A stretch of 64,000 nt of DNA. Source: Antitrichia curtipendula. Lineage: Eukaryota; Streptophyta; Bryopsida; Hypnales; Leucodontaceae. Position 1 is the first letter of the stretch. The number at the start of each line of letters is the position of its first letter. A program made the position numbers and the translations under genes. This document shows positions 1 to 53,859 of this stretch, in pieces. The notes beneath the pieces were generated by a model that was not told the origin of the DNA, did not search any database, and was given only the letters and a program-made list of their open reading frames with translations. The stretch is taken from assembly GCA_951230915.1 (NCBI GenBank), contig OX579640.1:25254981-25318980 (forward strand), read 5' to 3'.

Positions 1-155
1 GGAAGATACTATCCATCAAAGTGATGCAGCGACAAAGGAGCAAGAGTCTTCACAGCTGGAAATTGCTGCATCAGGTTTCTAAATTTCCCATTTTGGTGAC
101 ATTCTTCATATTGTCTACTTGTCTTCCACTTGTTGACATTGACCGGAGTTGTTTT

Positions 156-227
156 GTTGTTGGTGAACTTGACAAAGGTGTTGTTGGTGAACTTGACAAA
201 GGTGTTGTTGGTGAACTTGACAAAGGT
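156..227 (+). repeat. Three tandem 24-bp units in the first exon of the left ParB-like gene
   Basis: Three consecutive copies of a 24-bp unit encode three VGELDKGV octapeptides in frame. They sit N-terminal to the ParB-like region, in the acidic part of the protein. The right copy has no such repeat but is also acidic at this place. Confidence 0.9.
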
Positions 228-1335: not shown

Positions 1336-1666
1336 AACACAATATTCGTTATTTTGGGAGAATTCCATGATTTTGGGAGTATGCAGTTCAGCGCGGTTCG
1401 CGCTGATCTGCACCACAGATTGGAAAACTGAAATTTCCGAATGACCATAACTTACTCAAATCTTGTCCAAACTGGGCATATGAGGTGTTTTTTGACATCT
1501 AAGGAATCTGTAGATGTCAAAAAACACCTCATATGCTCAGTTTGGACAAAATTTGAGTAAGTTATGCCCATTCAAAAATTCCAGTTTCCCAATCTGTGAT
1601 TCAGATCAGCACGAACCGACCTAAATTGGGAGATAGGAAAACTCCCAAAATAACGAATATCGTGTT
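1336..1666. mobile_element. Foldback miniature element in an intron
   Basis: The 25 bases at 1336-1360 and 1642-1666 are reverse complements with one mismatch; each contains CGTTATTTTGGGAG. The complementarity continues inward: 'acttactcaaat' and 'aaacacctcatatgctcagt' both have partners, so nearly all of the 331 bp can fold into one hairpin. It lies between the exons ending at 1148 and starting at 1722 of the ParB-like pseudogene. A CGTT on each side may be a short target duplication. No coding capacity. Confidence 0.8.
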
Positions 1667-4091
1667 CGTTGTTGTTTCATGCCAAACGCTTATTTTTTCC
1701 AATTGTTAATTTTGTTTCCAGCAAGAGTTAGATGAAGCCGTTGCACATGCAACAAGGCGGTTCAAAGAGAGATACCCAGAGAAGTCAATTGAGTGGACTA
1801 CTGTGAAGCTGCACGAGGCAATTGGAAAGGCAGTGGATAAGGTAAAGAAGGAGACTCATTCTGAACTGAAGAAACAACTTCCGATTGCAGATCCCAAACT
1901 AATCCCCCAGTTTTTTGAAGAAGTTAAAAAACATTACGAATGTCGGGAAGATGATCCTGAGATGTCTCAGGAGAAGCTTTGGTATCTTGCGACATCCTCC
2001 ATGGATAATTCTATGAAGGTGAAGTGGCTTGAGCGTTGGAATAAGCCGGCATCTCTACGGGAGGCTGTGAAGTTCCCTAGGTTCAACTTTGCTGACCATG
2101 CATTTCCAGAGTGGCTGCATAAAGCTACTTGGTGGGGTCAGGTGGGTTTTGTTCAACCAGCACGTTCATGATTTCAAAGTAATTCTCCATGTGTCAGTTT
2201 TCTTATTTTCTTGTTTTTTTACAGATCGCGAGTGAAGTGCAGTTGCTTTTTGATGCAATGTTATCCGATATCAATGTCACAATTGACTACAAACCGCCTG
2301 GTGAAATTGCCATCAAATCGATTTCGGACTACGTGGAGGAAATGCAAATTCAGCTGTGGGATTTGGCGTTTGAGGACGAATTCAAGGACAAGAAGGTTCA
2401 CAAAAACCACCCACCTGAGCTCCAAGTGGGACTATCAAAGGCTGTTTCACGTGTATTGTACAGGTATTTCATGTACATATTGTACCCAAGGAAGGCACTA
2501 TCTAAAGTACCTGCATTTTTTACTAGCTATCTTGACATGAAAGCTGAGAATTGCATGATTACTGATGCCATTGGTGCAAAGTGGAAGAGAGAGCACTGGG
2601 AAAAATGTGGTTGGTACATTGATTGCCCGGTGACCAGGCCACCATCATTTGACATCAACCTCCGAAATAGTATCCAACCTGATTTAGCCGGCACGGATGT
2701 TGTCATCCTCCCTCTGACCACGACGGCTCCTGCTAAGAAAACACGTGGTTTGAAGAGGAAGGCCCAAGAGGAGGAAGCTGTCAAAAAGAAGGCTGTGATG
2801 GAAGCTGAGACCGCGGCAAAAATTCAGGCGGCTACTGTTGTTGCTGAGGCCAACATGAAGCGACTTGCAGAGGCGTCTATTGCAGATGCTAATGCCAAAT
2901 TAGCAGCAGCCACTTCATCATTTGCCGCAGCTGGGTTGGATGAGGACTTTCAGGTCCTCGACGATGCCCTCATTCCTACAGCAAATCGAGGTGTACTCCG
3001 TACTCAGAGAACACCTTCTTCAGTTGAAGATGAAGGATTTAGTCCTCTGTCCTTTGCAACACAGAAATTGAAGTAGAAGGTGCTTTCAGGGAAATCAACA
3101 TCATCACCGCCGCCATTGCAGTCTTCTATCTTTGTCGCAAACACTTCCATCATGAAGATGATGGCTGAGTTACCTGACCATCATCCAAGTCTGGATGGAC
3201 TTAACAATTTTGCTCTCAAGGTAATTTTCATTCTCCCTTAAGTTTATTCCATTTTTCTATCTTCAATTTTCATTCCATTTTTCTATCTTCAATTTTCATT
3301 TTCTTAGTGCACCTTCACGTGTAAATATGTGTGCAGGTGAAAATAGAGACTGGAGACACGGCCCTCTCAGCACATTGCCTTCATAGTGAGTTTGACCTTA
3401 TTGTTGCGGATTTGAAGTCTGGACTTGTGATTCCAGGGATTTCATTAAACAGCTCTGACGTTCCCTCTTGGAATGAGTACTCTTTGCTATAGTTGGAGTC
3501 TGTGTTTGAGTTCTCCGAGAAATTTGTGCACGCAACTGGCGGCTTTTTGTTGTTTCTTCCAGACCAAGTAAATGTTCGCACAGATGTCCTTTCGTATGCC
3601 AATGGCTACAACTTTCAATTGATTAGAGAATGGTGGGGTATAAATGACCTCCCATGCTCTTGCCCGATGAATCCCAAACTCAAGGTACCTCACAATCCAT
3701 CTTTCTTGATATCCTTCAAATGCAAAAATTTATTCCTTATCGTTGGTAACTGATGTTTTGGTTTTCTCAGATCCCTAACAGTTTCAATTTGTCTTGTTCC
3801 AGATTAGGAGGTTCAGAATTTGGTTGTTCTTGCATAAGAGTACTTCACCGGCTCTCTTCTCTTTTGGAGTTAACGATGACCTCACCGAAGTTGGACTTGG
3901 AGTTGCAGAGTCTGATGTGCTCTTTAATTTTACTACAACCGAGTCTCAAGCGATGAATGGAAGGGTTCTATGGAGGGGCGCTCATGAGAAAGATATTGCC
4001 TTCCTTCAAATGCTTATATCAGCTCTAACTAAACCGGGGTCACTCGTTCTTGATGCATTTGCGTCTATCAGTATATACTCTTCCCATCTTT

Positions 4092-4294
4092 GATAATTTC
4101 ACTTTTGCCAAAATGAAGCTTTTAACTTACTCAATTTCCTGTTGATTCAAGTAATTCTTTGCAAGCATGCAAGGCAATTGGCCGCCACATTGGATAATTT
4201 CACTTTTGTCAAAATGGAGCTTTTAACTTACTCAATTTCTTGTTGAATTCAGGTAATTCTGTGCAAGCATGCAAGGCAATTGGCCGCCACATTG
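4092..4294 (+). repeat. Tandem duplication (~101 bp) across an intron-exon junction
   Basis: Two near-identical copies begin at about 4092 and 4193. Each contains the end of an intron plus the start of the exon encoding the second half of the SAM-binding motif (reads as NSLQACKAIGRHI / NSVQACKAIGRHI). Only the second copy has a good acceptor (attcag before GTAATTC). The first reads attcaag, so it is probably skipped or non-functional. Confidence 0.75.
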
Positions 4295-4871
4295 TTGCCC
4301 TCGAGGAAGACATCGAAGTCTTTGATGTGAAGCTGAAGCTGTATCTGCCTCTGCCTCTTCAGCCGATTTTGGCTGCATGTATGTCTGTGTCGCCTGGAAT
4401 TGATATTGACCCTCCAATCCGCTTTGTGAAGAAGAAGAACCGTTTGAGTAAGTGAGTTTGGATTTCTTTCATTTTGTCAATTGAATTATGCTTGTCAATA
4501 CTTACATAATTCATACTAATTGTATTTCTGATTTTTCAGACTGAGGGCAATGATTGTCTCACCAGTGAAAGACTATGTGATGGTTCCATGGGACGCTGAA
4601 GTTGCGGATCTTCAAGCGGCCGTGTCCTCCCCAAGTTTGGCATTACCACGGCGGCAAATTGATCCCCAAGTTCGTAGATTCATTGACGACGAGGCCGTTG
4701 TTGAGATGCATTATCTCTCATCATCATCTAACAGTTCTAGTGATTGGAGGATATGAATTCTGAGATTTTTGATACATTTTTGAATTTTGGGTATTTACAT
4801 CAGTGAATCTAATGATAATCGTCAATGGCTTTCTTCTTCCTTCCACTCTTTCATTCTATTCTTTGTATTAA

Positions 4872-5649
4872 CCCTTAAAGTCCCAAGGCCATTTTCTGGC
4901 CAGAAACCACTGAAAACTGCCATTTTTTCTGCATTCATCCCAAAAAAAGGAAAAAACTTTTTTTCAAAAATCTAACCATAAAATGTTGTTTTTAACTTGT
5001 CTAAGATCATGTGGTAAAAATTTCATCAAGTATGACTATATGGATTGGAAGAAAACTGCATTCAAAGTTTGGAGAAAAGTTCTTTTGGGTGGTGCCCTGA
5101 AATTTCAGATGACTTTGATTGCCTTTTGTCGAAATTTTTTGCACTACAGACTTTGAATTCAAAAATTGAACATATATTGGATCATGTTAGGAACATGTCC
5201 ACCCATTTCCAGCAGATTTGGAGACTTATAACACCTCCCAAAAAATCTTGCAATGCAACTATGCTGTGAAAAATGATAATAAAATACTTTTTTGCAATGA
5301 GATTTCATAGCCCATTCTTTGGGCGTCCTCAAAAAGTTTCAGAAAACTGCATGTCCCAGACTGTCACCCACTGCCCACCCCCGACCTCCGGTCTAGAGTG
5401 CAAACCCTGCCCCCTTCTACAGTCAATGGAATTGTGCCTGACCAGGCTGCCCCTCGAGTTTGGTTTGAGCAAAAAAAAACCATAACTTTTTCATCCGACA
5501 TCAAGTTTCAATAAAAATTATATATCCACGAACCTCTTAGAAAAATGCACGTCCTCAAAAAGTTTCAAAAAATCACAATATAATTTCAGCCCGTAGGTAC
5601 CTACCCAAACTCCAAATTGTCCCTCAAGGAGACAATGGGACTTTAGAGG
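4872..5649. mobile_element. TTAA-flanked miniature element, copy 1
   Basis: TTAA stands at 4868-4871 and again at 5650-5653. Inside are inverted ends CCCTTAAAGTCCC and GGGACTTTAGAGG. A TTAA duplication with CCC...GG ends is the pattern of piggyBac-type elements. The 778 bp hold only short chance reading frames. Internal sequence is shared with the copies at 7120-7857 and 7950-8529, for example the segment around 'catgtggtaaaaatttcatcaa'. It lies just downstream of the ParB-like pseudogene, inside the remnant of the larger element. Confidence 0.7.
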
Positions 5650-6197
5650 TTAACCTTAGTTTTGTTTATTCTAATCTCATTATTTTATCTGGGTCCTTTA
5701 GCCCTTGGTCACTATCATCACATTCTTGCATATTCCCTCATGCACCCATACTCCACCACATAGACATGAAGATCAATATTTCCAAAATGTTCATAATTCA
5801 AATTTCACTGAAGATAATCCTTGCAAGTTGCAAAGGCTTAAACATATTTAAAACATTGGAAGTTGAAATATCATATAGTTAGAAGCGACTCAACTAAGTC
5901 CGCATTCATGAACACATCCACCCTACCCTAAAATTCAATTTCTCAACAGCACTTTATTACCCGGACAGTTGAGGGACATAATATTTAAATTTCACTTTTA
6001 CAAGAATGATGATAAAATGACCTATACTCGTATTGTGATCTTATCCATACGTAAAAATTTATGCTTCAATAAGCCTTTACGACCCACGGCCATAGGATAC
6101 ATAATAATCTACCCAAATTGATGACTACTCTATTTACAATTTAAACACCTCCTGCTACATCACTAAGTTACTATAGTTTCCATTATCACAACAATTT

Positions 6198-6384
6198 CCA
6201 CGGTTATAGGACCTTAACACTATACTATTATTCTTATTTTCACATTTATTTTCACTTTTACTTTTACTTTTATATTTTGTCTCTATTTAATTTTAACTAT
6301 TAGCAGAAAAAAGTACAACTTTTTACGCTCTACGCTCACGACTCTACGCTCACCGCTCACCGCTCACAGCTCTGCGCACGCAAA
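6198..6384. mobile_element. Terminal region of the left Mutator-like element remnant
   Basis: A block reading CCACGGTTATAGGACCTT at 6198-6215 is followed at about 6325-6384 by GCTC-rich sequence (repeated CGCTCAC). The same pair, in the same order and orientation relative to the ParB-like gene, forms the end of the 38,507-53,849 element (38,594-38,613 and 38,519-38,566, inverted). So the left ParB-like pseudogene probably ended in the same kind of terminus. The outer boundary is not sharp and the other end is outside the window, so no target duplication can be tested. Between 5650 and 6198 I see only AT-rich DNA. Confidence 0.5.
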
Positions 6385-6511
6385 ATAGCAATCCCCATCG
6401 GCTCGACGTACATTATGAATAATTCTCTTGGTTTGTTTGTCTCTCTCCATGTTTGTTTTTTATGAATTTGTTTTTGTGAATTCTGTCCTTTTGTTCTTTG
6501 TCGCTTTGGTT

Positions 6512-38496: not shown

Positions 38497-38506
38497 GTTA
38501 TTATAT
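38497..38506 (+). repeat. Left target-site duplication of the Mutator-like element
   Basis: GTTATTATAT, flush with the element start CAGGGTTGCTAGC. The identical ten bases lie flush against the other end at 53,850-53,859. Confidence 0.75.
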
Positions 38507-38858
38507 CAGGGTTGCTAGCAGGCGAGCTTGGAGCGGTGAGCCGGTGAGCTTGTGAGCTGTGAGTGGGAAAAAATTAATTTGAAAAATTAGTGTAAAGGAC
38601 CTATGACCGTGGATGACATACGTAGTGCAATGTGAAAAATATAAGGTTTTGTTTGGATGTTACGTGCCTATTTGTATTTATTGACATTTCTTTCTAGGCA
38701 ACAATAGTGAAATATGAGGGCTGTAAATAAAGTGAAGCAATTAAAAAAAATAGGAAATGAAAAATATCCGAGATGTAGCCATAAAACACACAAATCCAAT
38801 CATAATAGAAATGAAATAGACAATAGTGGGACCCAAGAGATTTATCAACCTCATGAAT

Positions 38859-41800
38859 TTAATTTGCTATGAACTCACGTGCAGATTCGGAACTCGTAGA
38901 TGATTCTGAGGACTCTCTACCCTCGGATGCAGATCCATCTATGTACTGCAAAACGTTTAGAGCATATGTGTCTTTACGGCGTTTTGCTTTGGAGCAACCA
39001 AACTCCGCGAAGGCACTTGCCATTTGCTCGGCATAGACCGGAAGGTCAAAAGGCTTCTCCGGACTAATGAGAAGACTTGGTTTTGGCAAAATAGCACCTG
39101 CTGCCATCAATCGTCGATCCCTGCAAAATGAACAAAATAATGTTAGGGTTTTGAAATGTGAGTCACCATATTATGGAAGATTTTAAAAAGTGCCAACTTA
39201 CTTACTAAATTTCCCCTTGCGAGCGAATTTACGAGGCACCACGGGCATATCATCCGGATCTTCTAAAACCACCTCCATCAACACCGGCATTGATGCTGCC
39301 ACCACAGTCCCTGTTGACTTCCTCATCGGCTTCAAGATCGCGTTATAAATGTCTCTATTCCCCTCCAAGGCCACAATGTGGCGACCGGTGCCACGACAAG
39401 CTGAAATGCATGCACCTACAGGCCAAAAAATTGAAATACCTTAGTTCCTTGATTAGATTTGAAGATTACAATTAAAATGTAACATAATTGAATTGAGCAT
39501 TCACCTGTAGATGCAGTGCAATCCAATATCAGATCTCCTTCGATGCTTGTCGCTTCAAGGAGGATTGTAAAAAACCTTGGATTTTTTTCGCGCCCGCCTC
39601 GCCATGGCTTTTCTCCATTCATCGCCATGTCATCCGGATGGGTATAGTTCATCAACATGTCATCACATGCTATGTCAACACCAGCCTTGATCATGGTGTT
39701 AGTGCGCTTGAAAGAGAATTTGGAATTCCCTTTGGCGCCAAGGTCCTTGACAAGGAGGGTGATTCCAAACTTTTGTGTCTGCAGGAGCCAAGCAAAATGG
39801 ATATTAGAATGCATTGAATGTTAGTAGAGCACAAAGTGAATTGCTCATGAAAGCCCCAAAAAATCTGAATGAAATTTATCGTCTTTGTTTTGCCTACAGT
39901 CGAGGTCAAGTGCATACGGTTCATTCCCATCCACTCCTTCTTCTTCACCATCTGGTATATCTCACACATTCCAGCAATGTCCTCCTTCGCTTTGATGCTA
40001 TACGAGTGAAACACTATGATGCATCCGTCATCTTGTAGATGCTCGGCGGCAAAGTTGCATGCTGATTGGAGGGCCTCAGCATCTTTGTCTGCATTCCATT
40101 CCGGCACTTCGTCTGCTGGAGAAGAGACCCCTGGCACGGGCAAGTTCTCTGGGCAATCAATAAAAATGACGTCCACCCCTGGCTTAGCGTTTGTCACCCC
40201 TTCGAACTTGCGAGCTTTTCCAGCTGACATAGACTGCAAACATGTCATGCATTAAAATTGAGAGAATGAATACAAACAATGATAATGTCACTCCAAAAAA
40301 ATAAATCATTTATTACTATGAAGAGAAAGATGGTCACCTTTTTCAAAAAGACAAGGACGTCTTTGTACGAAGTCGGCTTCTTCTCCTCCATGTCAACCAC
40401 AAGGTCTTCAATCGAGACGTTGAGGATTAAATCCTCGGTCTTCACCACATCATCCTCTGTGAAGACCATCGCTTGGGTCACGTGAGTAATGACATCTTCC
40501 GTGAGCTGCGATAGAGTGGCCTTCCGCTTCCCTCCGCTGACAATTTCCAAATCATAATCCACTATGAGAGATGGTGCTTCGTCCTTCTTCTTACCCTTGC
40601 CCTTGGCTTTATCATCCTTCTCTTTCTCCGCCTTCTTTGCTGCTCGCTTAGCCTCCCTCTTTTCCGAGGTTTCCAGTTTCACTTGCGCTCGTGCTTCTTT
40701 CTTTTTGTCATGAGCATCTCTCTTCCTAATGGCCTTTGTTCTTGCTTTATCATCCAGGCCGGCAAACTCGTCAATGTCCAAATCGACAGCACCTTTGCCA
40801 TCCAAAGATCTCCTCAATTCTACTTCTGAAGGAGGAGTGAAGGCCATTGAACAGTCCAATACCATCCTCCACTGCTGAGATGAGCTGTGGTGTAGGTGCG
40901 TAGCTGATGCGAACTGAACATACAAGCCGTTGAGGTGCGGTCAAGAAATGACGATATGAATGGAGGAAGGTCCAAGCGAGAAATGGCCCCTTTGGCTTCA
41001 AGCTCTAATTTGAAATAACTGCAACACAATTACAGTTCTCCATAAGAAAAATACTACGAGGACAATAAAAGACTAACTAAAATATTAGAAGGATAATCCA
41101 AGTAAGGTTGAACAAGGTTTATATCCTCACTTTGTCTCTCACAAATTATTTCACAAACACAAGTGTGTAGAACCATAGCAACAATTTTAAGTTCTTATTC
41201 GAAGTGATGAAAGACAAATTACATTAGTACTTGATAGCGAACTACATTTTTATAGAAATAAGTTCAATGTACTTACCAGAAGAGAACTCTACGAACTGTG
41301 GAGCCTGAACCTTCGTGAGCCACAAAAGACTCTCCCTTCTTGAAATAGTTTTGTCCCTTGAAGTACGTCATGAAGCCATGATCCCATATTTTCTGCCTCC
41401 ATCCTTCAATGTACTCTGGCAAATATTGTGGCTGCTGCGGTACATTGTAATTGATGTTGATGTTGTCTTGCCTCACCACTGAATCGAAGTACTCCACAGC
41501 TGCATCTTCGATCTAAAAAAAATGACAGACTATGAAATTCCATAATTTCGGATATGACAAAGTTTTTTCCAAAGTCATGAATCAAACATTCAATACGAAC
41601 CATCAACAAATTCAATTACATGAACATAAGTAATATTGCTCACTTACGCCTGCATACCAAACGCATTTGGCAAGAAAAGTAGAAAGGTAGTTTTCGGAAA
41701 CAGGCTTCTGTGGGAACTTCTTCGCTTCACGAGATGGAGCAAAGGAGTTCCACCACTTCAGAATCTTGATCTTCTGTGCGGCTGTCATGTTGCATGTGGC

Positions 41801-42787
41801 TACCATCTGCAACTTCTCCAAGGTCATTTCGGGAACCTCATTCATGCTCCAATGCCTCTCCACCTACACCAATAGAAGATCAATTTCCAACTAAACATAA
41901 CATGTGAAAAATGTAAATCACTCAATTTTGAGAAACTTTACTCACTTGTTCTAGAAATCCAGGCCCATTTGCAGGATTCGCCACCGCCAACAATTTGCCC
42001 ATCTTCACACTCAAATGTTTAGTTCTCTCTTTTGCTCCAGCCTTCATGGCAAGTGCCAAATCTTCTGCCTTCCTCTCACTTTCAAGCGTGACCTCGGTAT
42101 ACTTCCGCATAGCAGCATCTGCGGCTTGAGAAATGTCTTGCTACAGAAGCACCCCAATTTTAGGTAATCACCTCATAAGATTCAAAAGCATGAGAAGACA
42201 AGGAATGTGAACTCTCATGTGAAACAAAATATCTTACCCGAAAAAGAAATGATGTGAAGACCTGCACTGGTATGGAGTACCATTTCTTGGAAATAGTGTT
42301 TTCAAGACATCTCTTCCTCTCTGACAGCCTAAGCAGACCAACAAATCTCTGAATTGGCAGAAGTCCATACTTCTGAACTTGATACAGAGTGTGTACCAAG
42401 TTAGTCTTGACATGGGAGTCTTCAACCGATCTGAAATGAAACCAGTATTCAAATAAATAATTTTTGCCTTAATCTTCTAATTAGGGTTGTCTATCCGGAC
42501 GTGACGTGAGGTTTTCACGTCCGGATGTCCGTCGGCGTCAGTCCGGACGCGTCCTGATGTGTCAGAATAACGTCAGGATCAAAAAAAAAAAATTTTTTTT
42601 TTTTTTTTTCAAGGACGGCCTGTCCGTCGACCTGGACGAACCGTCTGTCCACAGGGACGGACCAGCCGTCCACAAAAAAAAAAAAAGATTTTTTTTTTTT
42701 TTTTTCAAGGACGGCTTGTCCGTCGACCTGGACGGCCGGCTGTCCACAGGGACAGACCAGCCGTCCACCAGACGGACAGACTGTCCA

Positions 42788-42843
<56 letters not shown>

Positions 42844-43680
42844 CTGGATCCTGACGGACGCTGGGGTTGAATCCTGACGTCCGTCCGGACATCCTGACGG
42901 ACTGACAGGACGTGACGGGGACAACCCTGCTTCTAATGATATATAATAAATCAAAATTAAAAATAAAACCAAAAATACAAAGATAACTCACTTGTTGATG
43001 TCATGCATCACTTGCATGACAACTTCAATCCGACCTTTGGTGTCCAACACTATACAATTGACGGCACAATGCCATGTTGGATCCAGTGCGTAGCACCTGC
43101 CAATCAGGTTCATCCAAGCAATCCGATGGTGGTTTCCATCGCATATGTAGAACTTCAAGTTCTTCATGAACTTGAGCTCGGGTCTGGACTCCACATACTT
43201 AGTGAAGACTTCATTTTTTTCTTTCCAGAGTACATCCCACTTGCTCATCTCAGCCTCCGTAAATTCTGAGCTTTCTCCTTGCTCATTTGACGTTGAAACG
43301 TAGAACACCGCTGCTCCATCACGATATCCTCCAGCAAATTCTTGCTCTAACTTTTTGATGTCGCAAGAGAGTGTAGGCCGGACCATGGGCATGGCTACAA
43401 GCCTACACAATGGAATGTGTAGGCGAAAGAGTTCTTCAGGCTTCATCCGCAAGCCATGAAGCGTTTCTACCGAATCTCCTTTGTGAATACGCCGCAGTTC
43501 GTCTTCCAGCAAGCCCTTTTCTTCCTCGTCTTCAACACTATCCTCCTGCATGAACTCGCCTTCTTCTCCTTCGTCCCCCTCTTCAATCTCTGGCTGCATA
43601 GTATCATCCGTTCCAGGAGTCTCTCGAAGAGTTTCTTCTTGTGTTTCTTTGATCGGCGATATGTCCATCTGCATATACAA
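38859..43680 (-). pseudogene. ParB-like / DNA methyltransferase-like protein, right copy
   Basis: Ten exons inferred: 43,680 to about 42,991; 42,430-42,238; 42,140-41,946; 41,863-41,648; 41,512-41,277; 41,018-40,338; 40,233 to about 39,898; 39,778-39,505; 39,415 to about 39,206; 39,120-38,859. Most have clear GT-AG ends. The N-terminus is acidic. Then come LHIPLCRLVAMPMVRPTL and YICDGNHHRIAW, the ParB-like motif. A Lys/Glu/Ala-rich helical linker lies near 40,580-40,740. The methylase-like part follows: VDVIFIDCPENL (motif IV position, DPPY replaced by DCPE), DDGCIIVFHS, and LILDCTASTG with GRHIVALEGN (SAM-binding motif I). It ends in a Ser-rich tail. Exon 6 seems to need a frame change near 40,880: GGWYW is in one frame and LDCSMAFTPPSEVELRRS, the match to the left copy, in another. 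So it is probably inactive, though less damaged than the left copy. Confidence 0.62.
42474..42937. mobile_element. hAT-type miniature element with long A/T tracts
   Basis: The element proper is 42,482-42,929. Its ends are TAGGGTTGTC and GACAACCCTG, inverted with one difference and matching the hAT pattern. CTTCTAAT at 42,474-42,481 and 42,930-42,937 is a perfect 8-bp target duplication, the hAT length. Inside, a module of about 110 bp (GACGGCCTGTCCGTCGACCT, then GGACCAGCCGTCCAC) is present twice in tandem, separated by A and T homopolymers, and one A run reaches about 53 bases (42,789-42,841). It sits in the first intron of the right ParB/methyltransferase-like gene, so it inserted after that element formed. 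Confidence 0.88.
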
Positions 43681-43902
43681 ATTTATGTATGATAAATTTA
43701 AAACTCATGATCATAAACATGTGAGACGAATGATGTAAAGCATTCACTTGAGTCGAAATTCACAGTGCTATGCTTATGCCAAAAAAATACAAATCTTTAA
43801 TGATAGATAGGTAGATAACTGCATACATGATTGAAAAAATGATTGCCTTCATGGGGCATTCTAATAACATGCTGCTCAAGAAGATCACTACCAAGACATA
43901 TC

Positions 43903-45027
43903 CTATCCTATCACGTCCACTTCATTGTCCTCATCTGAATCTGAGCTAAGGATGATGACCTCGTCAGAATAAACCCTACCATTAAGCGGGCACTCACACA
44001 TAGACTCACATCCACCCTCAAACTGAGGACTACACGGAGAGTTAGAGAGCTCAATAGCAGAGGAAAATTCTGTATTAGAGCTCTCTGGTGACAACCACCA
44101 AGGGACAGGCTCACGTGTCTGACTAACACGGTCGCCCTCAAAAGCATCTGCCGCTCGCTCAGCGGCATCCATGATGTCTGCAAAACTCACCAATGTGTCC
44201 TCTTCATCACTTGAGTCGCTTGAGAGGTCCACGCCTGGTTGAGGCCACTTCTTGGTCTTTGAAGGCGCACCTATCTGAAGGGCTGGGAAACCCTTTATCT
44301 CAGGTGATTTTGGGGTCCCCAAAGTAGCTTTTGCATGCTTGCCTTTGCGTCCCTCCACCTACACAAGAACAAAGTAAGAATTAAATAAATTGATCATCTG
44401 GGTCTAGGCATCATATGTCTCAATGTGAACGCCTATGACAATGCAAAATTGAATTCAAAATTTCAATAGGGATATGGTAAAGAATCTAGTTTGTGGGGTA
44501 GCTCAAGAAGTGCCAAGAAGGACCGTCGGATAAAACGGACCCATTGAAAGTATAATTAGGTACCCCTCAAATAATATTTTTGGATTGTCGCCCATCAAAT
44601 GACAAAAATAATAGGAATTGAAGGAACATCAATTAGGGTATCGGATATCAGGTGTTCCCCTTGGAAACTCTCCCTCAGGGGTACCTCGAGGATTCTTTCT
44701 TATAGGGTATCAATTTACGGGGTACTTCGAGGTACCCAGGAAATACCCGTCGGATCCAAAGGACCTTTCTTGGGTATCTGGAGCTATCCCAGAAACGGGT
44801 CCTTGTGAGTGACCAATTTCGAATTCTCTAGAACGTGAATGAAGAATATACGAAACCATCTGCTTATGGAAAAAGTGAGTAATCCCACCGTTAAATTATG
44901 TAACAATATTTTATCTAAATTTGAAAATATCACAACATATCATCGCCTAAGACTTTGCTGATTTCGTGAGTAACCTGTTCACCTTCTCTCTGAGATTCCA
45001 TGGCAGTTCGCAGAGATGCATCATTTG
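43903..45027 (-). CDS. Hypothetical acidic protein with SUMO-interaction-like motif
   Basis: The last exon (about 44,358-43,903) follows an acceptor-like ttgtgtag and ends at a stop. It encodes a basic start (GRKGKHAK), an acidic run (LSSDSSDEED) and a C-terminal EVIILSSDSDEDNEVD. VIIL followed by Ser/Asp/Glu is the classical form of a SUMO-interaction motif. A likely preceding exon at about 45,027-44,974 reads ANDASLRTAMESQREGEQ between tgcag and gttact. A possible first exon lies at about 47,967-47,767. I do not recognise the family. It lies inside the Mutator-like element, upstream of the ParB-like gene and on the same strand, so it is probably an element gene. Confidence 0.4.
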
Positions 45028-45235
45028 CCTGCATTGTATAGAATTTGGAATCAGATATGTAAACACCTAAACCAGAAACTTTGCAAATATATCAAATATA
45101 TTTGGTCTCACTATCTTGAAAATCATGGCTTCACCGTGCCCTCTCGGAGCTGGACATGAAAATTCGTCCTCTGTCTGTCCTATAATCGATCAAGTGCTAA
45201 ATGTTTTTTAAAGAACCGCTGAAGTTGCCAGTTCC

Positions 45236-45309
45236 ATGGGTACCTCATGCCACCAGCTAAGACTGCGTCGGATCCGACGCCCATTCGGTGGCTTCTTGCT
45301 TAAACCCCA
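45236..45309. repeat. Hairpin miniature element centred on a GGATCC palindrome, copy 1
   Basis: A perfect 16-bp palindrome GCGTCGGATCCGACGC (45,265-45,280) sits between imperfect inverted arms (GCCACC...GGTGGC, and TGGG...CCCA further out). The same centre recurs in copy 2 and, with one change, in copy 3. Confidence 0.6.
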
Positions 45310-45694
45310 GAAATCGAGATCCACGAGAACTGTTTCCAAGAATCCGACAGCAAGTACTGACCATTTGAGACTCCTTGATCCTCGTCAAGTACCGGAGAAG
45401 TGAATAAAGCTACACCAGAATCTCGATCATCACCGAAAACTATATTTCAATCTGTAAAATGAAATATGCTTGGGACTAGGATCGACAGGTTGCAGAAGCG
45501 AGCAGAACTAACTAGGGACATGATTCAAAAACCGAATGGAAGTCAGAGGCGATTCAACTTATGAAGAAAATAAAACCTATACTCATTTGAGCTCGAACCT
45601 CGGAGGAATCTTCTTTGTCAAAGACATATTGAGACGCCAGTTGCGGTCGGAAACGAAACAGATCATCACCAAATTTATTTGTAGTTCCAGTTGG

Positions 45695-45767
45695 TGGGGT
45701 AGTAGCAGCCACTTGAAATAGTAGCGTCGGATCCGACGCCTGTCACTCGGCTACCTGCTACTACCCC
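45695..45767. repeat. Hairpin miniature element centred on a GGATCC palindrome, copy 2
   Basis: Arms TGGGGTAGTAGCAG (45,695-45,708) and CTGCTACTACCCCA (45,754-45,767) are perfect inverted repeats of 14 bp. Between them is the palindrome GCGTCGGATCCGACGC (45,723-45,738). At 73 bp it is too small to code. Confidence 0.8.
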
Positions 45768-48700
45768 AGAAAAGGGGACCGTTGACATCCCAACTTGACA
45801 TTTTGAATGACACGTTCGGTATGAATTTGAAGAAAGCACCCCCTAGACAACGACAACAGCGTTGCAATCACGTTCAAATGCCACGCACGAACCCGAGAAA
45901 CGTCAACCCCAGCGTCGCACCATTCGCGCGCCATGAAAGACCCCAGCTTCTCACCTGACGCGCGACACTCACCGGCCAGGAGCCTCGTTGCGGACGCGCC
46001 ACGCGTGATGCGGCAGACCAGGCGGGGAGCGGAGCGCGCAACACGAACATGGCACTCATAACCACAAGCTTGACAGATGCGTGAAACTCCCAATGTGTGC
46101 AACCTCGTTCTCATGAAATTCTAGCTTCAAGCGACCAGAAAGCCAGGGTCCTTGCAGCCCGAGGCACCCGACGAGCAATTACGTTCTCAAGTCAATCATC
46201 ACTCGCAAAATTTTGTACCATTGAATCGAATCCTACGTTTGTCACTCTTGATATGTAAATACGTCTGAGACAGACTCACACGGTAGGTCCAAGTGCAGGT
46301 GACACAACCCTCGCGGTCATGCTCACGGTCATGCACGAAACGAGATCAAAATGAAGCACATACCTTCGTTGCGTCAACTGGCTCCGAGTGGCTCCCAACT
46401 TCGTTTCCAAAGTTGCCCTGCCAGGATCGGCTCCGCATACTCCTCCTCATCGCTCCTTGTTCCTGCGCAGTCCCTCAGAGATTCAATCGATATGCAAGAA
46501 TGGATGGATATGGGACTGATGGTGGCCGATTTAGTATCGAAGTTCAGTGCTTCCTAAACCACACGCAGTTCGAGTCACAGGCTGTGATCGATGGAGCTTT
46601 TGGCTCGGCTGACTTGCCTCCGTGACAGCGGAATCTTTGGGCGGCAAATTGAATGCAGACCCAATTGCATGGATACTTTTCCCACGAATCCTCAATTCCT
46701 CATCCATGCAAATATTATCTAAGGAACGCAATCATGTTCAAAAGAGATTCTTCTTTCTATTCTTGAATCGGAGTTACCTTCTGTAATTTACACCACCTGT
46801 GCTTAAGAGTCCAGTTGCGGTTTAGTGGCCTCACTTACTTGCGTGATTTGTAGTTCATGAATGGTCGTTCCCTTACTGCCTAAACGTATCAACTTTAGCT
46901 GCCCGAATGTCTCGGTGAACTTGCCAGATGCGTGACGTGGCGCGCACGCTCTCATAGCTTCTCAGCAACAAAGAAGTCGACTTAAATCTAGAACTACTTA
47001 TATGTTGTTCTTTGTGGATAGTGAGATGTATTCTGTTGTGGTCCAAGAATTTGGAATACTAATTTCCAAATTTGAAGCCACCAAAGTGAAGGTACAATAT
47101 GTATGAAGAGTAATATTGAAGCCTAGACTGATTGAATGCTAGTTTCGGGAAAAAAAAAATGACAATGAAGTCAAAGATATCCATCTTTTCAAAAATCCTG
47201 CAAAGCAACTAATTTGTTTATCATTTTGCATCTACCAGAGACCATCCACTCATTAATTTATAGTGCTCAGTACGAAGTGTCAATCTATAAATCAGTCTCT
47301 ACCATTTCACCAAAAAGAAAGGATAATCATTAATTTATTCTAAATACGGTTCATTTTTTGATTTGGGGAGTCATGGTTAAAGCACAGCTTGTAATGTGAT
47401 GCATGCACTTGTCCTCAAGCACAACAACGTTCACTGTAGAGACATTGAAAACATTATTGATCCCTTGTCATTAGACTCTACTCAGATCACAACATCAATA
47501 CTTGAACATAGCTTCACTTTCTTCTTAGAATTTCATTTGAGTACTCACAACTACTGCAGTTCCAAGTTGGCAAACTATAAAGGGCCCTATATATTTGTAT
47601 CCTAAAACATATGCAATTTGGTGTCCTTTTTGTGCTTGTATGTATATTAGCAATACATGATTAAACTAATGTCTGGCCTCAAGGAATATCGCATTCAAAC
47701 ATATGGCGCTTGCGTAATGAGCACTGGATAAAAACAACAAGCTCTTGAGAATAGAGAGAATAGATATTATCGTACATTAGTGCTGACGTGATGAGTTGAA
47801 ACTTCGTCATACGTGAAATTTTGCTGAGAGTCTTCCCCTTCTCCGCCAACCTCCTCGCCTACAACACCCATTGCGTCCCCACTTTCTCCCACCTCGAAGT
47901 GAAGAGTCTTCCGAAACTTGCCAGCTCCAGAATTTCCGGACTTTGACATAGCTCTCTTGGATCGATTCATTCTAGCTCTACTCAATGCTCAGAAGAAGAA
48001 AAATAGAATGAAGATCGCCTCTTCCTCTTTCTACCCTGCAATGGCAAGCTAAACAAATCTCCCCGGTCTTCTATGAGCATGTGCTAAGAGAAAGGATAAT
48101 GAGAACTTCCTCAAAGAGCAAGCACTAACACACCAAAAAGATGATGTACAAATGAATCCCTCCTCCTAAAATAGACTATAAGTACTCTTTGAAAATGGAC
48201 GTTGGCCTCCATAACTTCACACAAGTTGTGCTATAGCATAGGTCTGCCATTTTGGCTTGTTATTGTTGCAAAGCGTGCCGCGTCACAGCGCTTGATGGTG
48301 CCGTCAACATCTATGACAGTTAAGAAGAGCAACATCAATTCTGATAGTACTTTTTTGGTAAATGTGAAATTCTGCACATGCCATGGTACAAGCGTGGATT
48401 GTGTGTCATATAATCAGAAGAGGATAAATATCTCAAAAAGAAATTTAGGACATATCTTAAATCAAATCTATCTGCAGTGATTCCTTCACTTCATACCTAA
48501 ATGCACTACAATGATGATGAGACCGTATTGTAGCAGTTGTCCCTTCCCAAAATATTTAGTAAATGCTGGCGCTTATGAACTTGAAGAACATCAAAAGGAT
48601 GGCATCTACCGTCATTAATGATGAAAGTAAAAATTATAACCAAATTTACCTTTGGCGCCTTTGTCCATAATGGGGAATGGCATGGATCACTATAAAACAT

Positions 48701-48784
48701 GGAGACAACCAAGTAACCTGTGTATCCTTCATATACAGTGTGACACTTTTGGATTTCAGCATCTACTTGTCTATTGATAGAAAC

Positions 48785-51700
48785 ATGGCCTGCATACGTG
48801 TAGATGGTCAAGAGGCACCCTTAGTGTTTCCACTTGATAAAGGAGGGCGAGCTAAAGTACTGAATCATTTGCTTCATGTGAGATTCAAATTTGTTGAATC
48901 GACTATCTATGTAGAGGAAGAAAGAAGGTCTAAGTTAGGTGAATTGCAACAATCAGTTCCTATACTAAAGTCCATGTGTGATGAGGGCTTCTGTTGGTAT
49001 CTAGCGTCTGGGAATTATAGAGTTTATGGTATCTCACTATCAATGGTACCCTCCTCTCTTGAGATAGGAAGTCGGCAATCAGTGAATTCAACAGTGGATA
49101 TCCCATTCATGAGAGAGGCAACTACAGAAGGTCCGTGTCGTGAACGTCTCTCAGTATTTCCTAGAAGTCCAATTCCTGTTATACCGAAGATAGAGAACTT
49201 GGATTCTATCACAGAGTTGGCTAGCGATTCAGAAGAAGACTCTCCACCCTTAACCCTTCAACTGAACCCCCTTACAATTAACAATGCTTTAGAAGAGAAG
49301 GGAAATGGGAACTCTGAATCCAATACCCCATCTAGTAGTCATGTGTGCTATGTGTTGTCCCATCCTCCATTGCACCCAAGGCCTTTCCACCAACCCAGTA
49401 TAATGAAGTGCTTGAGGAGACTTTCTAAGCTTCACCGTTCTAGGAGTGAGTTGTCTACAATGGACTTTGACACTGTGGAACACCATGAAGTGAAGTTTTT
49501 GCCTCCTACATACAATGGGGACACCATCTTCGAATTACCTCCGTGTGGACCACAATCTTATTCATCTTGTGCAAAGAACTTGGAAGGAATAGACAAGCGA
49601 TACGACGGACATCCTTGGTGCAAGTTGGTGACAACAAACATCCACAACTTCGAAAACTTAAAGTTCCGTAAGTCATACTGCGCTGGTCATCTTGTTTGTG
49701 AAAATACTGAGTGTGAGTATATGAAGAGGGCTTCCAGAAAGAATGAGACAGAGTGGAGCGGTTCTACAATTTTTCCTTTTGCAATAGGAGAGGGTCCTTC
49801 TAAAGATTGTAGGCTAGTTTGTAAGGTTTGCAAAACAATACCTACGTGCGCGAGCTTATGCGGCGCTAGAATTTACTATTGCTACAGCGATGATGCAAAG
49901 ATGAGTAGGGCTGCTATTCACCTCGGTAATCATATTCATCCAGTAGCTATGGGCTTGTATAGGGACTCCGCAAAAGAAATTAGTGATCTCATTGCAGAGC
50001 AGGTGTCTAGAACCCCCACAGCCACCAACTCTGCCATTGCGCTATCTGCTAGCAAAGATTTTCTACAAAATCACCTATTTCATCACGGAGAAGGAGAGAA
50101 GGAAATGTTGAAGGGAGAAGAAATGGAAGAGGTCATGGACCGCTTCCAGTTTCTGAGCAGTCCAAGTATACGAAACGTCATCTCTTCTTTTCGCTCAAAC
50201 AACCGAGGAGGAGTCATTGACAACATTATGACCATGAAGAAAGAATCAAAGTTTGAATTTATACATGATAGCGTCTTCCCAGGCCAAGGCAAAGAAAAGG
50301 TGTACATTTTCAAAATGCTCATTGAAGGACCTGGAAGTGGAGTGGACTTGATAAGGTGTATGCAACCAGGTGGTGATCTGCAAAACACGTGGATGATGTT
50401 CGACCACGTAAAGCGCGTGAAGGACTGGACCACAATGGCTTGCCACGTGTATGATTCACAGTACAAAAAAGTGATGACCATTGCCATGTGTGACATGCAA
50501 TCTGAAGATACCGAAGTCCAAGTACAATTTTGGAAGAGTTTGAATTTGGTCATGGCACGACATGGATTGGTTGATCTGAACTTCAAGGGATTTATGGCAA
50601 ATAGCGCCATGGCCAATTGGAACGCAGTTCGTATTGTGTACGGTAGTGGCAGACCCGATGAAGTAATGAAGAACCGTGAAAGGACGTGTTTGCTACACTG
50701 GAGTACATCTCTTATAAAACACACACAGAAGCACATCAAGCATGCATTTCAACAACAACACATTATGTTATGCAAGCAATATAAAGAATCAAAGACCGTG
50801 GATGAAGCAGAGAGTCGGTACCTTGCAATTCGTTCATGGTGGCTTTCGTCTGGAGCTGCAACCGAAGAAGCACTTCATCACCTAGACCACTGGCTGGCAT
50901 TTTGGCATTTTCGATATTTACAGTGGGGAGGCTTCATGACCATGGTAAGCTCAATTAAGAATTTTTGTTTCTAGCTTCATTTTTTATTTATTACAAAGTG
51001 TTGCAAAATAGAGTTATACTTTGTACCTGAAAAAATTGTCAATGGCTTTTGTTTTTTTTGGTTTCTGTACATGACAACATACGTGAAATTTTGACAAGTA
51101 AATTTCTTTGATTTATTGATGAATTTAAAAAATGGGAGTAGTACCAAGCAATACTTAAACATCCGTCGGATCCGATGGATGTTCATGTGTTGTCTAGTAC
51201 TACTCCTATTTTGGGTATTCATTAGTTGCAAGGAATTTGAAAGGTCCTAAATTAAGAATTCACATTTTCAATATTCCTTACAAGGTATCGTAGTTGTACA
51301 GTGTGAATTTTTAGAATTCGTTTTTCTCATACAAATGTTTCATGTATGCTTAGAATAGTTTCTAATTGCTTCGGTTGGATTTGTAGGGCTTGAGTTTGGA
51401 AGAGATGATAGATTTACCTTTTTGTAATCTGTCCGAAACGGTTCATAACAAGTGGCTTCAAATGTTCGGTAAACGTGCAAACAATTTGTTTAACGCCACT
51501 TGTGATGATAGTATTCGTGCTTGGATGCAAATGACAAACTACCGTGCATATTTGAGAGGTCACACTTCTGGTTCAGGACCATCCAAGGGAGAATTGAAGT
51601 TGAGAGCTGCCAGACACAGCGGATGCCCAAAAAAAATTGTGGAGGCATTGAACACATTGCCGGAAGCACATGGTGTAGGAACTCGAGTACCGCATTTGGA

Positions 51701-52775
51701 AGGAGAAGAAATATTTGGAAGCACAAAGAGAAAGTTGGACATACCTATTGGTGATGCCAGAGATTCACATCGCCCCAACAAGGTCAACTTTTCTCAACCT
51801 CGAGTTCGAACAAGGTCAACCAAGGTTTTCACGGAGCCATTGGAAGTCAACCAATCACACAGCGAGGTCACTCCACACCAGTATGTGCCAATTGCACTTA
51901 AAAGTGATTGCGACACATCAAAGTGGCACATTGCAAGGATAAGTCACAAATCAAATGCAAGATGCCAAGCTCAGCAACGAATGTCAAAGATCAAGTGTAC
52001 CACAAAAATTGCAAAAGGAAGAAAGGGAACTCCAGTTCCCACCTACCGTGGTAGAAAAGAAGAGTACGGGAGTAAGCGTGAGGTGGTGGCCAATTTTTGG
52101 TTTTGTTGGGATGATATTGAACGATGTGTGCAAGGTACAAAGTGTAAGTGGGTCATAGATTGGCCTGAGGTGCCGCAAGTTTGGCAAGTGTTGGCTGGAA
52201 CCAACTTGGATCGAGAAGAGACATTGTTGCTGCAGCATGCAGGCTTCCGCCTCCAAGAACGGCCTACATTGTCGCCACGTTAGCTCTTCTCCATGTCTAA
52301 TATTTTTGAGCCTGTTTTGTTTGACCAAGCATCTCCACCAAATCCGGATGCATATCCAACAGTGAGGAACAACCGGACCATTAGGAGAGCTACAAATGCC
52401 CCTACTGCAGAGCAACAAAACAAGTAGGAGAGTGCTCGGAATGTTAGAGGCCAAATTTTAGGAGTGACCCTTCTCCCTTTTCCAGGCCTTGGAGCAATAA
52501 TGGTACTCGAGAGTGGGGTGGACTCCAACAGCCATATATACCGAATTATTGTTGGTATGTTTCCTACATGCATATGTCCGGACTTTGTGAATATGGTTGT
52601 GTCCGTTGTTGGAGGTCGCCAACAATACGTGAATTGTAAGCACTTGTACTACTTGTATAGGTACTTCTACAAGATGGACCTCCATGAAGACAAATTCATT
52701 CATGCACCTAGTTATAGCTACAATGAGTTGAAGGTACTCCTAGTGCGGACAAGGATTATCATATTGCCAGAGTAA
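48785..52775 (+). pseudogene. Mutator-like transposase with GCM-type finger and SWIM finger
   Basis: Exon 1 is 48,785-50,944 (720 codons) and exon 2 is 51,387-52,775, in phase, with gtaagc and ttgtag splice sites. Residues about 273-310 (WCKLVTTNIHNFENLKFRKS, then CAGHLVC) resemble the WRKY/GCM1 zinc-finger group found in Mutator-like transposases. A second Cys set (CKVCKTIPTC) follows. The DDE-like core includes FDHVKR (Asp540) and GFMANSAMANWNAV. In the second motif Asn606 stands where I would expect catalytic Asp. Exon 2 ends with a SWIM pattern, TCICPDF ... YVNCKHLYYL (CxC...CxH), typical of this superfamily. Two in-frame TAG codons (52,281 and 52,425) cut off the SWIM part, so it is probably inactive. 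It would bind and cut the ends of the surrounding element. Confidence 0.7.
51131..51215. repeat. Hairpin miniature element, copy 3, in the transposase intron
   Basis: Arms TGGGAGTAGTAC (51,133-51,144) and GTACTACTCCTA (from 51,197) are near-perfect inverted repeats. The centre is an imperfect 22-bp palindrome (51,160-51,181) containing CGTCGGATCCGA. It lies within the intron between the two transposase exons. Confidence 0.75.
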
Positions 52776-53849
52776 GTATGGCTACTTTTTTTATGTAGTG
52801 CAAAGTATTGTAATGGCCCTCATACATTGAAATGATATGAAGTATATGGCATAGAAGAAGTTATTGGTTTCAGAAAATAGAGGAGCATGTCTCATATGTA
52901 AGAATACGTGTGGATAATTAAAATGCATATGCATGAGTTCCAACCTTATATTTTACTGTAATACTACACACCCAAATACAAGGCGGCCTTTGCTAATACA
53001 TGAGCGTACAATACTGATGAGAGCTGAAAATGGGGAAGAGCGACAAGACCAATGTCCAGGTTCCTATTCAAGTGTTCCACAACACATGTTCAGAGGTCAC
53101 TTTTAAGTCTTCAGTTGTCCCATAACGATTGGCATTTGGAAATGAGTCATTATATAAGTAGTTACGTTCAATGAACAATCATTGCGGGAGGACTGTTTGG
53201 GGAATAGACCTTGGCCGTAATTGTGTGGCATATTATATTCCCAACGGTCCTCTAGCATTTTGTTCAAGATGAATTACGTCATGTGTATTTTGTATTCAGG
53301 CAACTTCGTATTTGGGCACAAAAAATTGTGAAAGATGGAGTTGCCTCCCCATTACCATTTGTGAATGAATTTTTGTTCACTGGTAGTGATTGGCTTTCAC
53401 AACCTATAGAAAAAAAAAATATGTTGAGTGATGGAGTTGCCTCCCATTGAAATTTGTAGATTAATTTCTACTCACCGATGGTGCCTTGCTTTTACAAAAA
53501 ATATTTAAAAAAAATCGATGAGTGATGGAATTGGGCCCCCATTAAATTTTGTCGATGAATTTCTGTTCATCAGTGCGGCTTGGCTTTCACAACTTCTAGG
53601 AAAATAAATATGGTGAGTGATGGAATTGCCTCCCATTCAAAAATAAAATTTCACACAATCCACGGTTATAGGGTGCACGGTAATAGATCAAAAAATTGAC
53701 ATTTTCCCTCTTTTTTCCCAACAAAATCGGAAAAACCAATTTGGGAGTCCGAATTTTCAATTTTTTTAAGTTTGGGGGCTCCAAGCTCACGAGATCCACG
53801 CTCACAGCTCACAAGCTCACCGCTCCAAGCTCGCTTGCTAGCGTCGTTG
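52776..53849. other. Right non-coding end of the Mutator-like element
   Basis: AT-rich. A segment of about 80 bp starting with a form of 'gatggagttgcctcccattgaaat' is repeated imperfectly about four times between 53,330 and 53,640. The inverted terminal repeat occupies about 53,783-53,849. Confidence 0.55.
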
Positions 53850-53859
53850 GTTATTATAT
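53850..53859 (+). repeat. Right target-site duplication of the Mutator-like element
   Basis: GTTATTATAT, identical to 38,497-38,506, directly after the element end GCTAGCGTCGTTG. Confidence 0.75.

What the first reader, a model, noticed from the sequence alone, without database searches (positions are those of the whole stretch)
38497..53859. 15-kb Mutator-like element that carries a ParB/DNA-methyltransferase-like gene
Seen: paired inverted ends (20-bp perfect core), GCTAGC near both tips, a second inverted block further in, and a 10-bp direct repeat flush on both sides. Between them are a GCM/DDE/SWIM transposase and a ten-exon ParB/methylase-like gene on the opposite strand. Known: Mutator-type elements make 9-11 bp duplications and use such transposases, but a ParB plus methyltransferase-fold gene is not a standard passenger that I know of. 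Inference: the gene is a functional part of the element (self-marking, segregation or escape from silencing), not a one-off capture.
Basis: partly seen in the sequence, partly recalled or inferred. Interest (0 to 1): 0.88.

Follow-up and report, generated by a model that had tools for sequence, protein, structure and literature searches.

The report
Jumping gene with ParB-methylase partner
A large mobile DNA element in this probably plant genome carries, beside its own cutting enzyme, a second gene built from bacterial-style ParB and DNA-methylase-like parts; related elements keep that gene under selection and most carry mirror-image DNA sites of their own, which suggests a partition-like or anti-silencing system that would be new to eukaryotic transposons.

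Summary
The element is real and belongs to a multi-family lineage. Genomic copies fix its ends at 38507 and 53849. All 20 close left ends (the window's included) have a right end 14.6-39.5 kb away and enclose the ParB exon. Target duplications are 10 bp in 5 of 5 copies read at both ends. The 400-Mb genome has at least 150 ParB-exon matches. A second ParB-methylase gene in this window (1-4756) sits in another element with a 44%-identical transposase and the same divergent two-gene layout. Between families both genes show dN/dS near 0.1, though most pairs are saturated. So the gene is a selected part of the element, not a one-off capture. Exon 1 has the ParB fold. The methylase motif is altered. 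New here: palindromic sites cored on GTCGGATCCGAC, 379 genome-wide against 3 for a reversed control; 41 of 50 listed lie near ParB exons, but 5 of 20 ParB loci on C1 lack any variant and the second element has none. The window copy is decayed. Function is inferred: ParB-like loading at these sites to counter host silencing.

The parts
38497..38506 (.). left target-site duplication GTTATTATAT
   Evidence: 5 of 5 copies read at both ends have perfect 10-bp duplications
38507..38565 (+). left terminal inverted repeat with three GTGAGC boxes (38536, 38544, 38552)
38859..43668 (-). ParB-methylase gene of element A, ten exons (43668-42992, 42430-42238, 42140-41946, 41863-41648, 41512-41277, 41018-40338, 40233-39898, 39778-39505, 39415-39202, 39120-38859); private frameshift in exon 6
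   Evidence: read by eye from the sequence and supported by relatives; the true start and any further 5' exon were not established
42991..43434 (-). ParB/sulfiredoxin-fold domain
39202..40233 (-). permuted N6/N4 methylase-like domain (exons 7-9): DCPE where a DPPY-type motif would stand, then a motif-I-like loop
   Evidence: PF01555 E 0.0037, below its cut-off; relatives; motif names recalled
42481..42930 (.). MITE-like insertion in intron 1 of this copy, about 450 bp, 7-bp duplication
   Evidence: 9 of 10 other copies join directly here, one (C5:32.2 Mb) has it
44690..44815 (.). degenerate palindromic site around 44750-44759
45213..45332 (.). palindromic site, core GCGTCGGATCCGACGC (45268-45277 inside); weak arms
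45672..45791 (.). palindromic site, core GCGTCGGATCCGACGC (45727-45736 inside)
51111..51230 (.). palindromic site in the transposase intron, core TCGGATCCGA (51166-51175)
48785..52283 (+). transposase, exons 48785-50944 and 51387-52283, 1018 aa; N in place of a conserved Asp at residue 606
53320..53641 (.). three to four imperfect 95-bp direct repeats inside the right end
53785..53849 (-). right terminal inverted repeat with four GTGAGC boxes (53785, 53800, 53807, 53815)
53850..53859 (.). right target-site duplication GTTATTATAT
1..6397 (.). right part of a second, diverged element (element B); it begins upstream at G000:C8:25248265
213..4756 (+). ParB-methylase gene of element B, 31% identical over 700 aligned codons, with an in-frame stop near 3490
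   Evidence: start not established
6317..6397 (-). right inverted repeat of element B with GTGAGC boxes
   Evidence: 74 nt, 84%
6398..6406 (.). 9-bp target duplication TCGGCTCGA of element B (or 10 bp with one mismatch)

Best explanation
Element A is a (now defective) copy of a once autonomous Mutator-like transposon whose lineage carries two divergently transcribed genes. SHOWN: (1) in every family-A copy read far enough, and in element B, the transposase gene and the ParB-methylase gene lie between one pair of ends; in three further families they lie side by side, ends not checked. (2) Both genes show similar purifying selection between families. (3) Family A and three of four sampled further families carry ~100-120 bp palindromic sites centred on GTCGGATCCGAC or a close variant, in the intergenic region and introns. 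INFERRED: the transposase binds the GTGAGC-rich ends and moves the element by cut and paste, leaving 10-bp duplications. The ParB-like domain binds the palindromic sites, as ParB does at parS, and spreads or clamps along the element. The methylase-like domain, with a conserved but non-canonical catalytic motif, then binds or modifies DNA so that host cytosine methylation is kept off or undone. This would be an anti-silencing role like that of VANC in Arabidopsis VANDAL elements, but built from other parts.
For: 20 of 20 close copies have both ends and the ParB exon. Colinear copies. Element B repeats the two-gene layout at 44% transposase and 31% ParB-methylase identity. Divergent transposase in the 7 kb upstream of the ParB exon in 3 of 4 further families. 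dN/dS 0.13 for the one pair with moderate dS (1.07), and 0.10-0.12 in four pairs with dS 2.5-2.9; transposase dN 0.16-0.20 against dS 1.5-1.7 in three pairs; against 0.64 and 0.59 within family A. ParB fold; R of the GNHR motif in 36 of 36 homologues. Palindrome 379 against 3; 41 of the first 50 listed sites within 13 kb of a listed ParB exon, 0.6 expected. With the central two bases free, 15 of 20 ParB loci on C1 below 47.24 Mb have a site. Of 723 within-family changes 533 are C>T or G>A, three times more often at CpG, as expected if the host methylates the element. VANC precedent: binds short motifs enriched in non-coding parts of its own element (PMC5735166, passages).
Against: No binding, methylation or expression data. 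The methylase tetrapeptide is DCPE in element A and unrecognisable in element B, so catalysis is doubtful. Only 12 of 25 listed ParB loci on C1 have the exact site; 5 of 20 lack any GTCGGNNCCGAC; the family at C1:8.81 Mb and element B have no TCGGATCCGA within one mismatch. With the centre free the genome-wide excess is only 614 against 149, and without the AT core 235 against 146. Sites are inherited with copies, so the 379 are not independent. Ten of 15 family pairs were saturated in dS. Each of the 11 family-A copies examined has a stop or shift in at least one gene, so no working element was shown. Ends were not checked for most of the 150 ParB matches.
Confidence: 0.5

Rival explanations
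1. The second gene helps transposition itself (like mudrB, said to be apparently required for integration) rather than fighting silencing: its ParB part pairs or bridges ends and internal sites, or nicks DNA as reported for a bacterial ParB-methylase.
For: Similar selection on both genes. mudrB is described as apparently required for integration (PMC6446971, passages). A ParB-methylase of Bacillus cereus is reported to have nicking activity (PMC5512222, passages).
Against: In family A the palindromes lie in the intergenic middle and in an intron, not at the ends, which have their own GTGAGC boxes.
Confidence: 0.25
2. The palindromes are not ParB sites. They are hairpin MITEs, or they act as RNA hairpins (small-RNA source, splicing or termination signal), and ride along in the elements.
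For: They can form strong hairpins (at best -100 kcal/mol against a mean of -30 for shuffled arms), stand in different introns in different families, and share outer GGTACC/GGAGGT-like boxes as an insertion family would.
Against: They are concentrated at ParB-gene elements: 41 of the first 50 listed, 0.6 expected. In the window no exact core lies in 42.2 kb outside the elements. Target duplications around the hairpins were not looked for.
Confidence: 0.3
3. The methylase is active and marks the element's own DNA with 6mA or 4mC, as a self-label read by its transposase or by the host.
For: The motif-I-like loop and the surrounding sequence are kept across the sampled families. 4mC is used in bdelloid rotifers and, per that paper, in Marchantia spermiogenesis (PMC8885841, passages).
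Against: The DPPY-type motif is DCPE, with no aromatic residue. PF01555 is below its cut-off.
Confidence: 0.15
4. One-off capture: a ParB-methylase gene was picked up by this copy (Pack-MULE style).
For: Mutator-like elements often carry captured gene fragments (PMC6446971, passages).
Against: 20 of 20 close copies, several families and an element with a 44%-identical transposase have it; dN/dS near 0.1.
Confidence: 0.02

Closest known systems
Arabidopsis VANDAL/Hiun elements (vanA, vanB, vanC)
   Same: Mutator-type element with accessory genes; VANC binds a short motif enriched in non-coding parts of its own element, and motifs differ between families (PMC5735166 passages, PMC10398659 abstract)
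   Different: VANC was not compared by sequence here. Here the accessory protein has a ParB fold and a methylase-like part, and the motif is a long palindrome
Maize MuDR (mudrA, mudrB)
   Same: two-gene Mutator element (PMC6446971 passages)
   Different: no ParB or methylase fold is known to me for mudrB (recalled); not compared by tool
Bacterial and phage ParB-methylase proteins (e.g. Bacillus cereus Bce_0392)
   Same: ParB domain fused to an adenine methylase (PMC5512222 passages)
   Different: prokaryotic; sequences not compared directly. No relative was found in viral or bacterial contigs with the exon-1 profile
Plasmid/chromosome ParB-parS
   Same: ParB fold plus palindromic sites near the gene
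   Different: chromosomal eukaryotic transposon; no ParA was looked for; binding untested
DIRS and Ty3/gypsy retrotransposons with methylase domains
   Same: DNA methylases carried by eukaryotic transposons (PMC6338049 passages)
   Different: retrotransposons; that paper states that transposons encoding methylases are not present in land plants such as tracheophytes

Membership tests
Mutator (MULE) superfamily | 8-11 bp target-site duplications (PMC6446971) | tested here: met
   10 bp in 5 of 5 copies read at both ends; 9 bp (or 10 with one mismatch) in element B
Mutator (MULE) superfamily | terminal inverted repeats | tested here: met
   they are short (about 40-60 bp) for this superfamily
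Mutator (MULE) superfamily | RNase-H-fold DDE transposase | tested here: met
   model residues 475-720 match ISCth4, RAG1 and Hermes transposases; D540 and D606 conserved in 27 of 28 and 27 of 27 homologues; whole model pTM 0.40
Mutator (MULE) superfamily | kinship with the IS256 group rather than another DDE group | tested here: inconclusive
   [not shown]
Mutator (MULE) superfamily | curated MULE/SWIM sequence profiles | tested here: inconclusive
   no Pfam family matched more than 1 of 30 members
GCM-type zinc DNA-binding domain | GCM fold | tested here: inconclusive
   [not shown]
ParB/sulfiredoxin superfamily | fold | tested here: met
   [not shown]
ParB/sulfiredoxin superfamily | G-x-x-R pocket motif (recalled) | tested here: met
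   GNHR in 36 of 36 homologues; H for R in the window copy and 3 of 10 others
ParB CTPase clamp | CTP binding and sliding on DNA | not testable with these tools
   needs protein
N6/N4 DNA methylase (PF01555) | profile match above cut-off | tested here: not met
   17.7 bits (E 0.0037) for element A and 16.1 bits (E 0.011) for element B, cut-off 26.7
N6/N4 DNA methylase (PF01555) | catalytic (D/N/S)PP(Y/F/W), recalled | tested here: not met
   DCPE in the window and in 9 of 9 other family-A copies that can be read, DCPE in three and DCQE in one of four other families, ADLK in element B
VANC-type anti-silencing system | motif concentrated in the element's non-coding DNA | tested here: met
   not in element B or the family at C1:8.81 Mb
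VANC-type anti-silencing system | protein causes loss of DNA methylation on its own family | not testable with these tools
   needs plants and bisulfite sequencing

The most novel reading that the evidence does not exclude
The lineage carries a eukaryotic ParB/parS-like system: a transposon-encoded ParB-methylase fusion that loads on self-encoded ~110-bp palindromic sites, spreads along the element and shields or re-marks its chromatin against host methylation. Protein and sites co-evolve family by family.
Probability: 0.35. Interest if true: 0.92.

Novelty: new variant of a known kind. Interest (0 to 1): 0.8.

Why it matters
Accessory genes of transposons are seldom shown to be selected parts of the element, and the plant anti-silencing case that I found in print concerns VANC proteins. 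Here another protein, with a ParB fold and a methylase-like part, is kept by selection in a lineage whose ParB exon has at least 150 matches in one genome, and most sampled families also have palindromic sites concentrated at these elements. It gives a concrete protein-site pair to test for how transposons escape silencing. If the pair binds, it would be a ParB-like clamp module at work in a eukaryotic transposon, which I have not seen described.

Tried and rejected
Capture by a single copy: rejected. A full-length ParB-methylase query against the protein database found nothing, probably because multi-exon genes appear there as exon-sized pieces; an exon-1 alignment then gave 255 hits, 120 listed. 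Viral contigs: no relative by tblastn for the transposase or the exon-1 profile. Bacterial and archaeal contigs: none with the exon-1 profile; a distant bacterial origin is not excluded. Pfam on separate exons was uninformative (DUF1015 in 3 of 37 at best E 0.061). Three contig lengths (15646, 185737, 583271) are shared by the transposase and ParB hit lists; weak evidence, since contigs were not named and the second list is cut at 120. An empty orthologous site was not sought. A genome-wide transposase search did not complete, so linkage of both genes rests on the copies fetched. Hairpin density without regard to the core was low everywhere, including element A (1 site), so the site claim rests on the core motif. 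Sites were chosen by that core, so its conservation there is not evidence.

Papers: PMC5735166, PMC6446971, PMC5512222, PMC8885841 and PMC6338049 were seen as passages; PMC10398659 as abstract and outline; the rest only as search listings. The statement that I found no paper on such an element rests on searches of open-access papers only.
Full report
WHAT WAS CHECKED. The finding describes a 15.3-kb element, 38507-53849, flanked by GTTATTATAT. The inverted ends, the inner inverted block and the direct repeat are in the sequence; the 28-nt core occurs twice in the window against a mean of 0.00 expected. CACTA-type domains nearby make a plant likely; this is inference.

THE ENDS ARE REAL. A query that begins 17 bases outside the element finds 20 copies at 95-100% identity, the window's included. 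Of the 19 others 12 begin exactly at window 38507, 5 within 4 bases of it, and 2 at 38539. The right-end query finds 27 others at 85-99%: 14 stop exactly at 53849, 12 one to three bases beyond, 1 earlier. All 20 left ends have a same-strand right end within 45 kb, 14.6-39.5 kb away; I take the longer ones to hold nested insertions. The five copies read at both ends each have a different, perfect 10-bp duplication.

THE SECOND GENE IS REGULARLY THERE. A search with the ParB exon gives 150 scored matches, the cap, from 1,315 first-look candidates. One lies inside 20 of 20 close left ends, and inside 18 of 20 more distant left ends (77-83% identical, one 94% over 53 bases) at 4.6-6.6 kb. Of the 40 right ends listed 32 have one within 25 kb. 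Of the 8 without, 4 pair with left ends already counted; the other 4 have none in the capped list. Ten other copies fetched in part or whole are colinear. ParB exon 1 was found in 10 of 10; transposase sequence in 8 of 10 (7 with the whole first exon, 1 partial), the other two stretches ending before it.

A SECOND ELEMENT IN THE SAME WINDOW. Window 1-4756 holds another ParB-methylase gene, 31% identical over 700 aligned codons. Upstream sequence shows a transposase 44% and 41% identical in its two exons on the other strand, an inverted repeat of 74 nt at 84%, and a 9-bp duplication TCGGCTCGA (or 10 bp with one mismatch). This element B is 13.1 kb with the same divergent layout. GTGAGC boxes cluster at both ends of A and at the right end of B. 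Four further families were sampled. All four carry the gene with the same domain order. In three a divergent transposase (50-69% identical) was found in the 7 kb fetched upstream; in the fourth (C1:8.81 Mb) none was found in that stretch. Their ends were not checked.

SELECTION. For the ParB-methylase gene 10 of 15 family pairs were saturated in dS. Of the other 5, one has moderate dS (dN 0.139, dS 1.07, ratio 0.13; 0.06 in the ParB domain and 0.09 in the methylase-like domain), and four have dS 2.5-2.9 with ratios 0.10-0.12, which are rough. For the transposase three pairs give dN 0.16-0.20 against dS 1.5-1.7 (ratios 0.11-0.13); three short comparisons with one family (191-204 codons) give 0.17-0.22. 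Within family A ratios are 0.64 and 0.59, and singleton changes fall about evenly on codon positions (two copies without transposase sequence left out of the second figure). This is the pattern of two genes needed for spread and then left to decay. Changes from the majority are 533 of 723 C>T or G>A, three times more frequent at CpG, as expected under host cytosine methylation.

THE WINDOW COPY IS DEFECTIVE. It has a private frameshift in exon 6, absent from the 8 other copies that cover the place. It has N for the conserved Asp 606 (D in 27 of 27 homologues, and in 7 of 7 other copies that could be read), and H for the conserved Arg of GNHR (shared with 3 of 10 copies). Each of the 11 copies, this one included, has a stop or a shift in at least one of the two genes.

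PALINDROMIC SITES. GTCGGATCCGACG, within two mismatches, gave 8 strand matches in the window (four places), 0.28 expected, all inside element A. In family A and in three of four further families such cores stand at the centre of ~100-120 bp inverted repeats with outer boxes. Thirty-one sites were looked at: 20 chosen from the genome list by their core and 11 from the families in hand. Ungapped arm matches run from 16 to 48 of 54 (about 13 by chance), and every fold is stronger than the mean of 30 arm shuffles, some barely (-41.1 against -37.6). Genome-wide the 12-mer occurs 379 times against 3 for the same letters reversed. Of the first 50 listed, 41 lie within 13 kb of a listed ParB exon, where 0.6 are expected. 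With the two central bases free there are 614 against 149, so variants without the AT core are 235 against 146, a mild excess. Of the first 50 of that list 42 lie near a ParB exon, and 15 of 20 ParB loci on C1 below 47.24 Mb have one; with the exact core it is 12 of 25 on all of C1. Family A has 3-7 per fetched copy, within two mismatches. The family at C1:8.81 Mb and element B have none within one mismatch. Copies share sites by descent, so the counts overstate independent events. The stronger point is that they recur in elements whose ParB exon is only 60-68% identical to that of element A.

HOW IT MOST LIKELY WORKS. Shown: two selected genes between fixed ends; palindromes concentrated at these elements; methylation-type mutation scars. 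Inferred: the ParB-like domain recognises the palindromes, clamps and spreads; the methylase-like domain acts on or reads DNA there; the result is relief from silencing. The nearest precedent is VANC, which binds motifs enriched in non-coding parts of its own elements and causes loss of methylation (PMC5735166, passages; PMC10398659, abstract). Rivals are a direct role in transposition (as for mudrB, PMC6446971, passages) and palindromes as RNA hairpins or MITEs.

NOVELTY. Transposon-borne methylases are known in DIRS and Ty3/gypsy elements and were said not to be present in land plants such as tracheophytes (PMC6338049, passages). Bacterial ParB-methylase fusions are known (PMC5512222, passages). 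I found no paper on a Mutator-like element with such a gene in searches. Judged as a kind, it is a Mutator-like element with an accessory gene; the accessory gene and the sites look new.

Noticed in passing
window 16776-21396, minus: Fragments of a CACTA-type element: Transposase_21 (E 2e-58), DUF4218, weak DUF4216.
   Followed up: no
window 12954-14678, plus: A DUF7869 gene (E 2e-44), perhaps of another mobile element.
   Followed up: no
window 1336-1666: A 330-bp palindrome in an intron of the element-B ParB-methylase gene.
   Followed up: no
window 42481-42930: A MITE-like insertion with AGGGTTGTC ends in intron 1 of the window copy; also in the copy at C5:32.2 Mb, absent at that place in the 9 other fetched copies.
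   Followed up: partly
window 43903-44358, minus: A 151-codon open frame just upstream of the ParB exon, rich in acidic residues; perhaps a 5' exon or a separate small gene of the element.
   Followed up: no
[not shown]
   Followed up: no
L027-L028 (C3:1864700-1881000): This copy matches element A at its left and in part of the transposase, but its middle differs and holds seven GTCGGATCCGA-type sites, as if recombined with another family.
   Followed up: no
window 53320-53641: Three to four imperfect 95-bp direct repeats near the right end of element A.
   Followed up: no
window 57322-60785, plus: Likely host genes beside the element: an RRM protein and a dsRNA-binding-motif protein.
   Followed up: no
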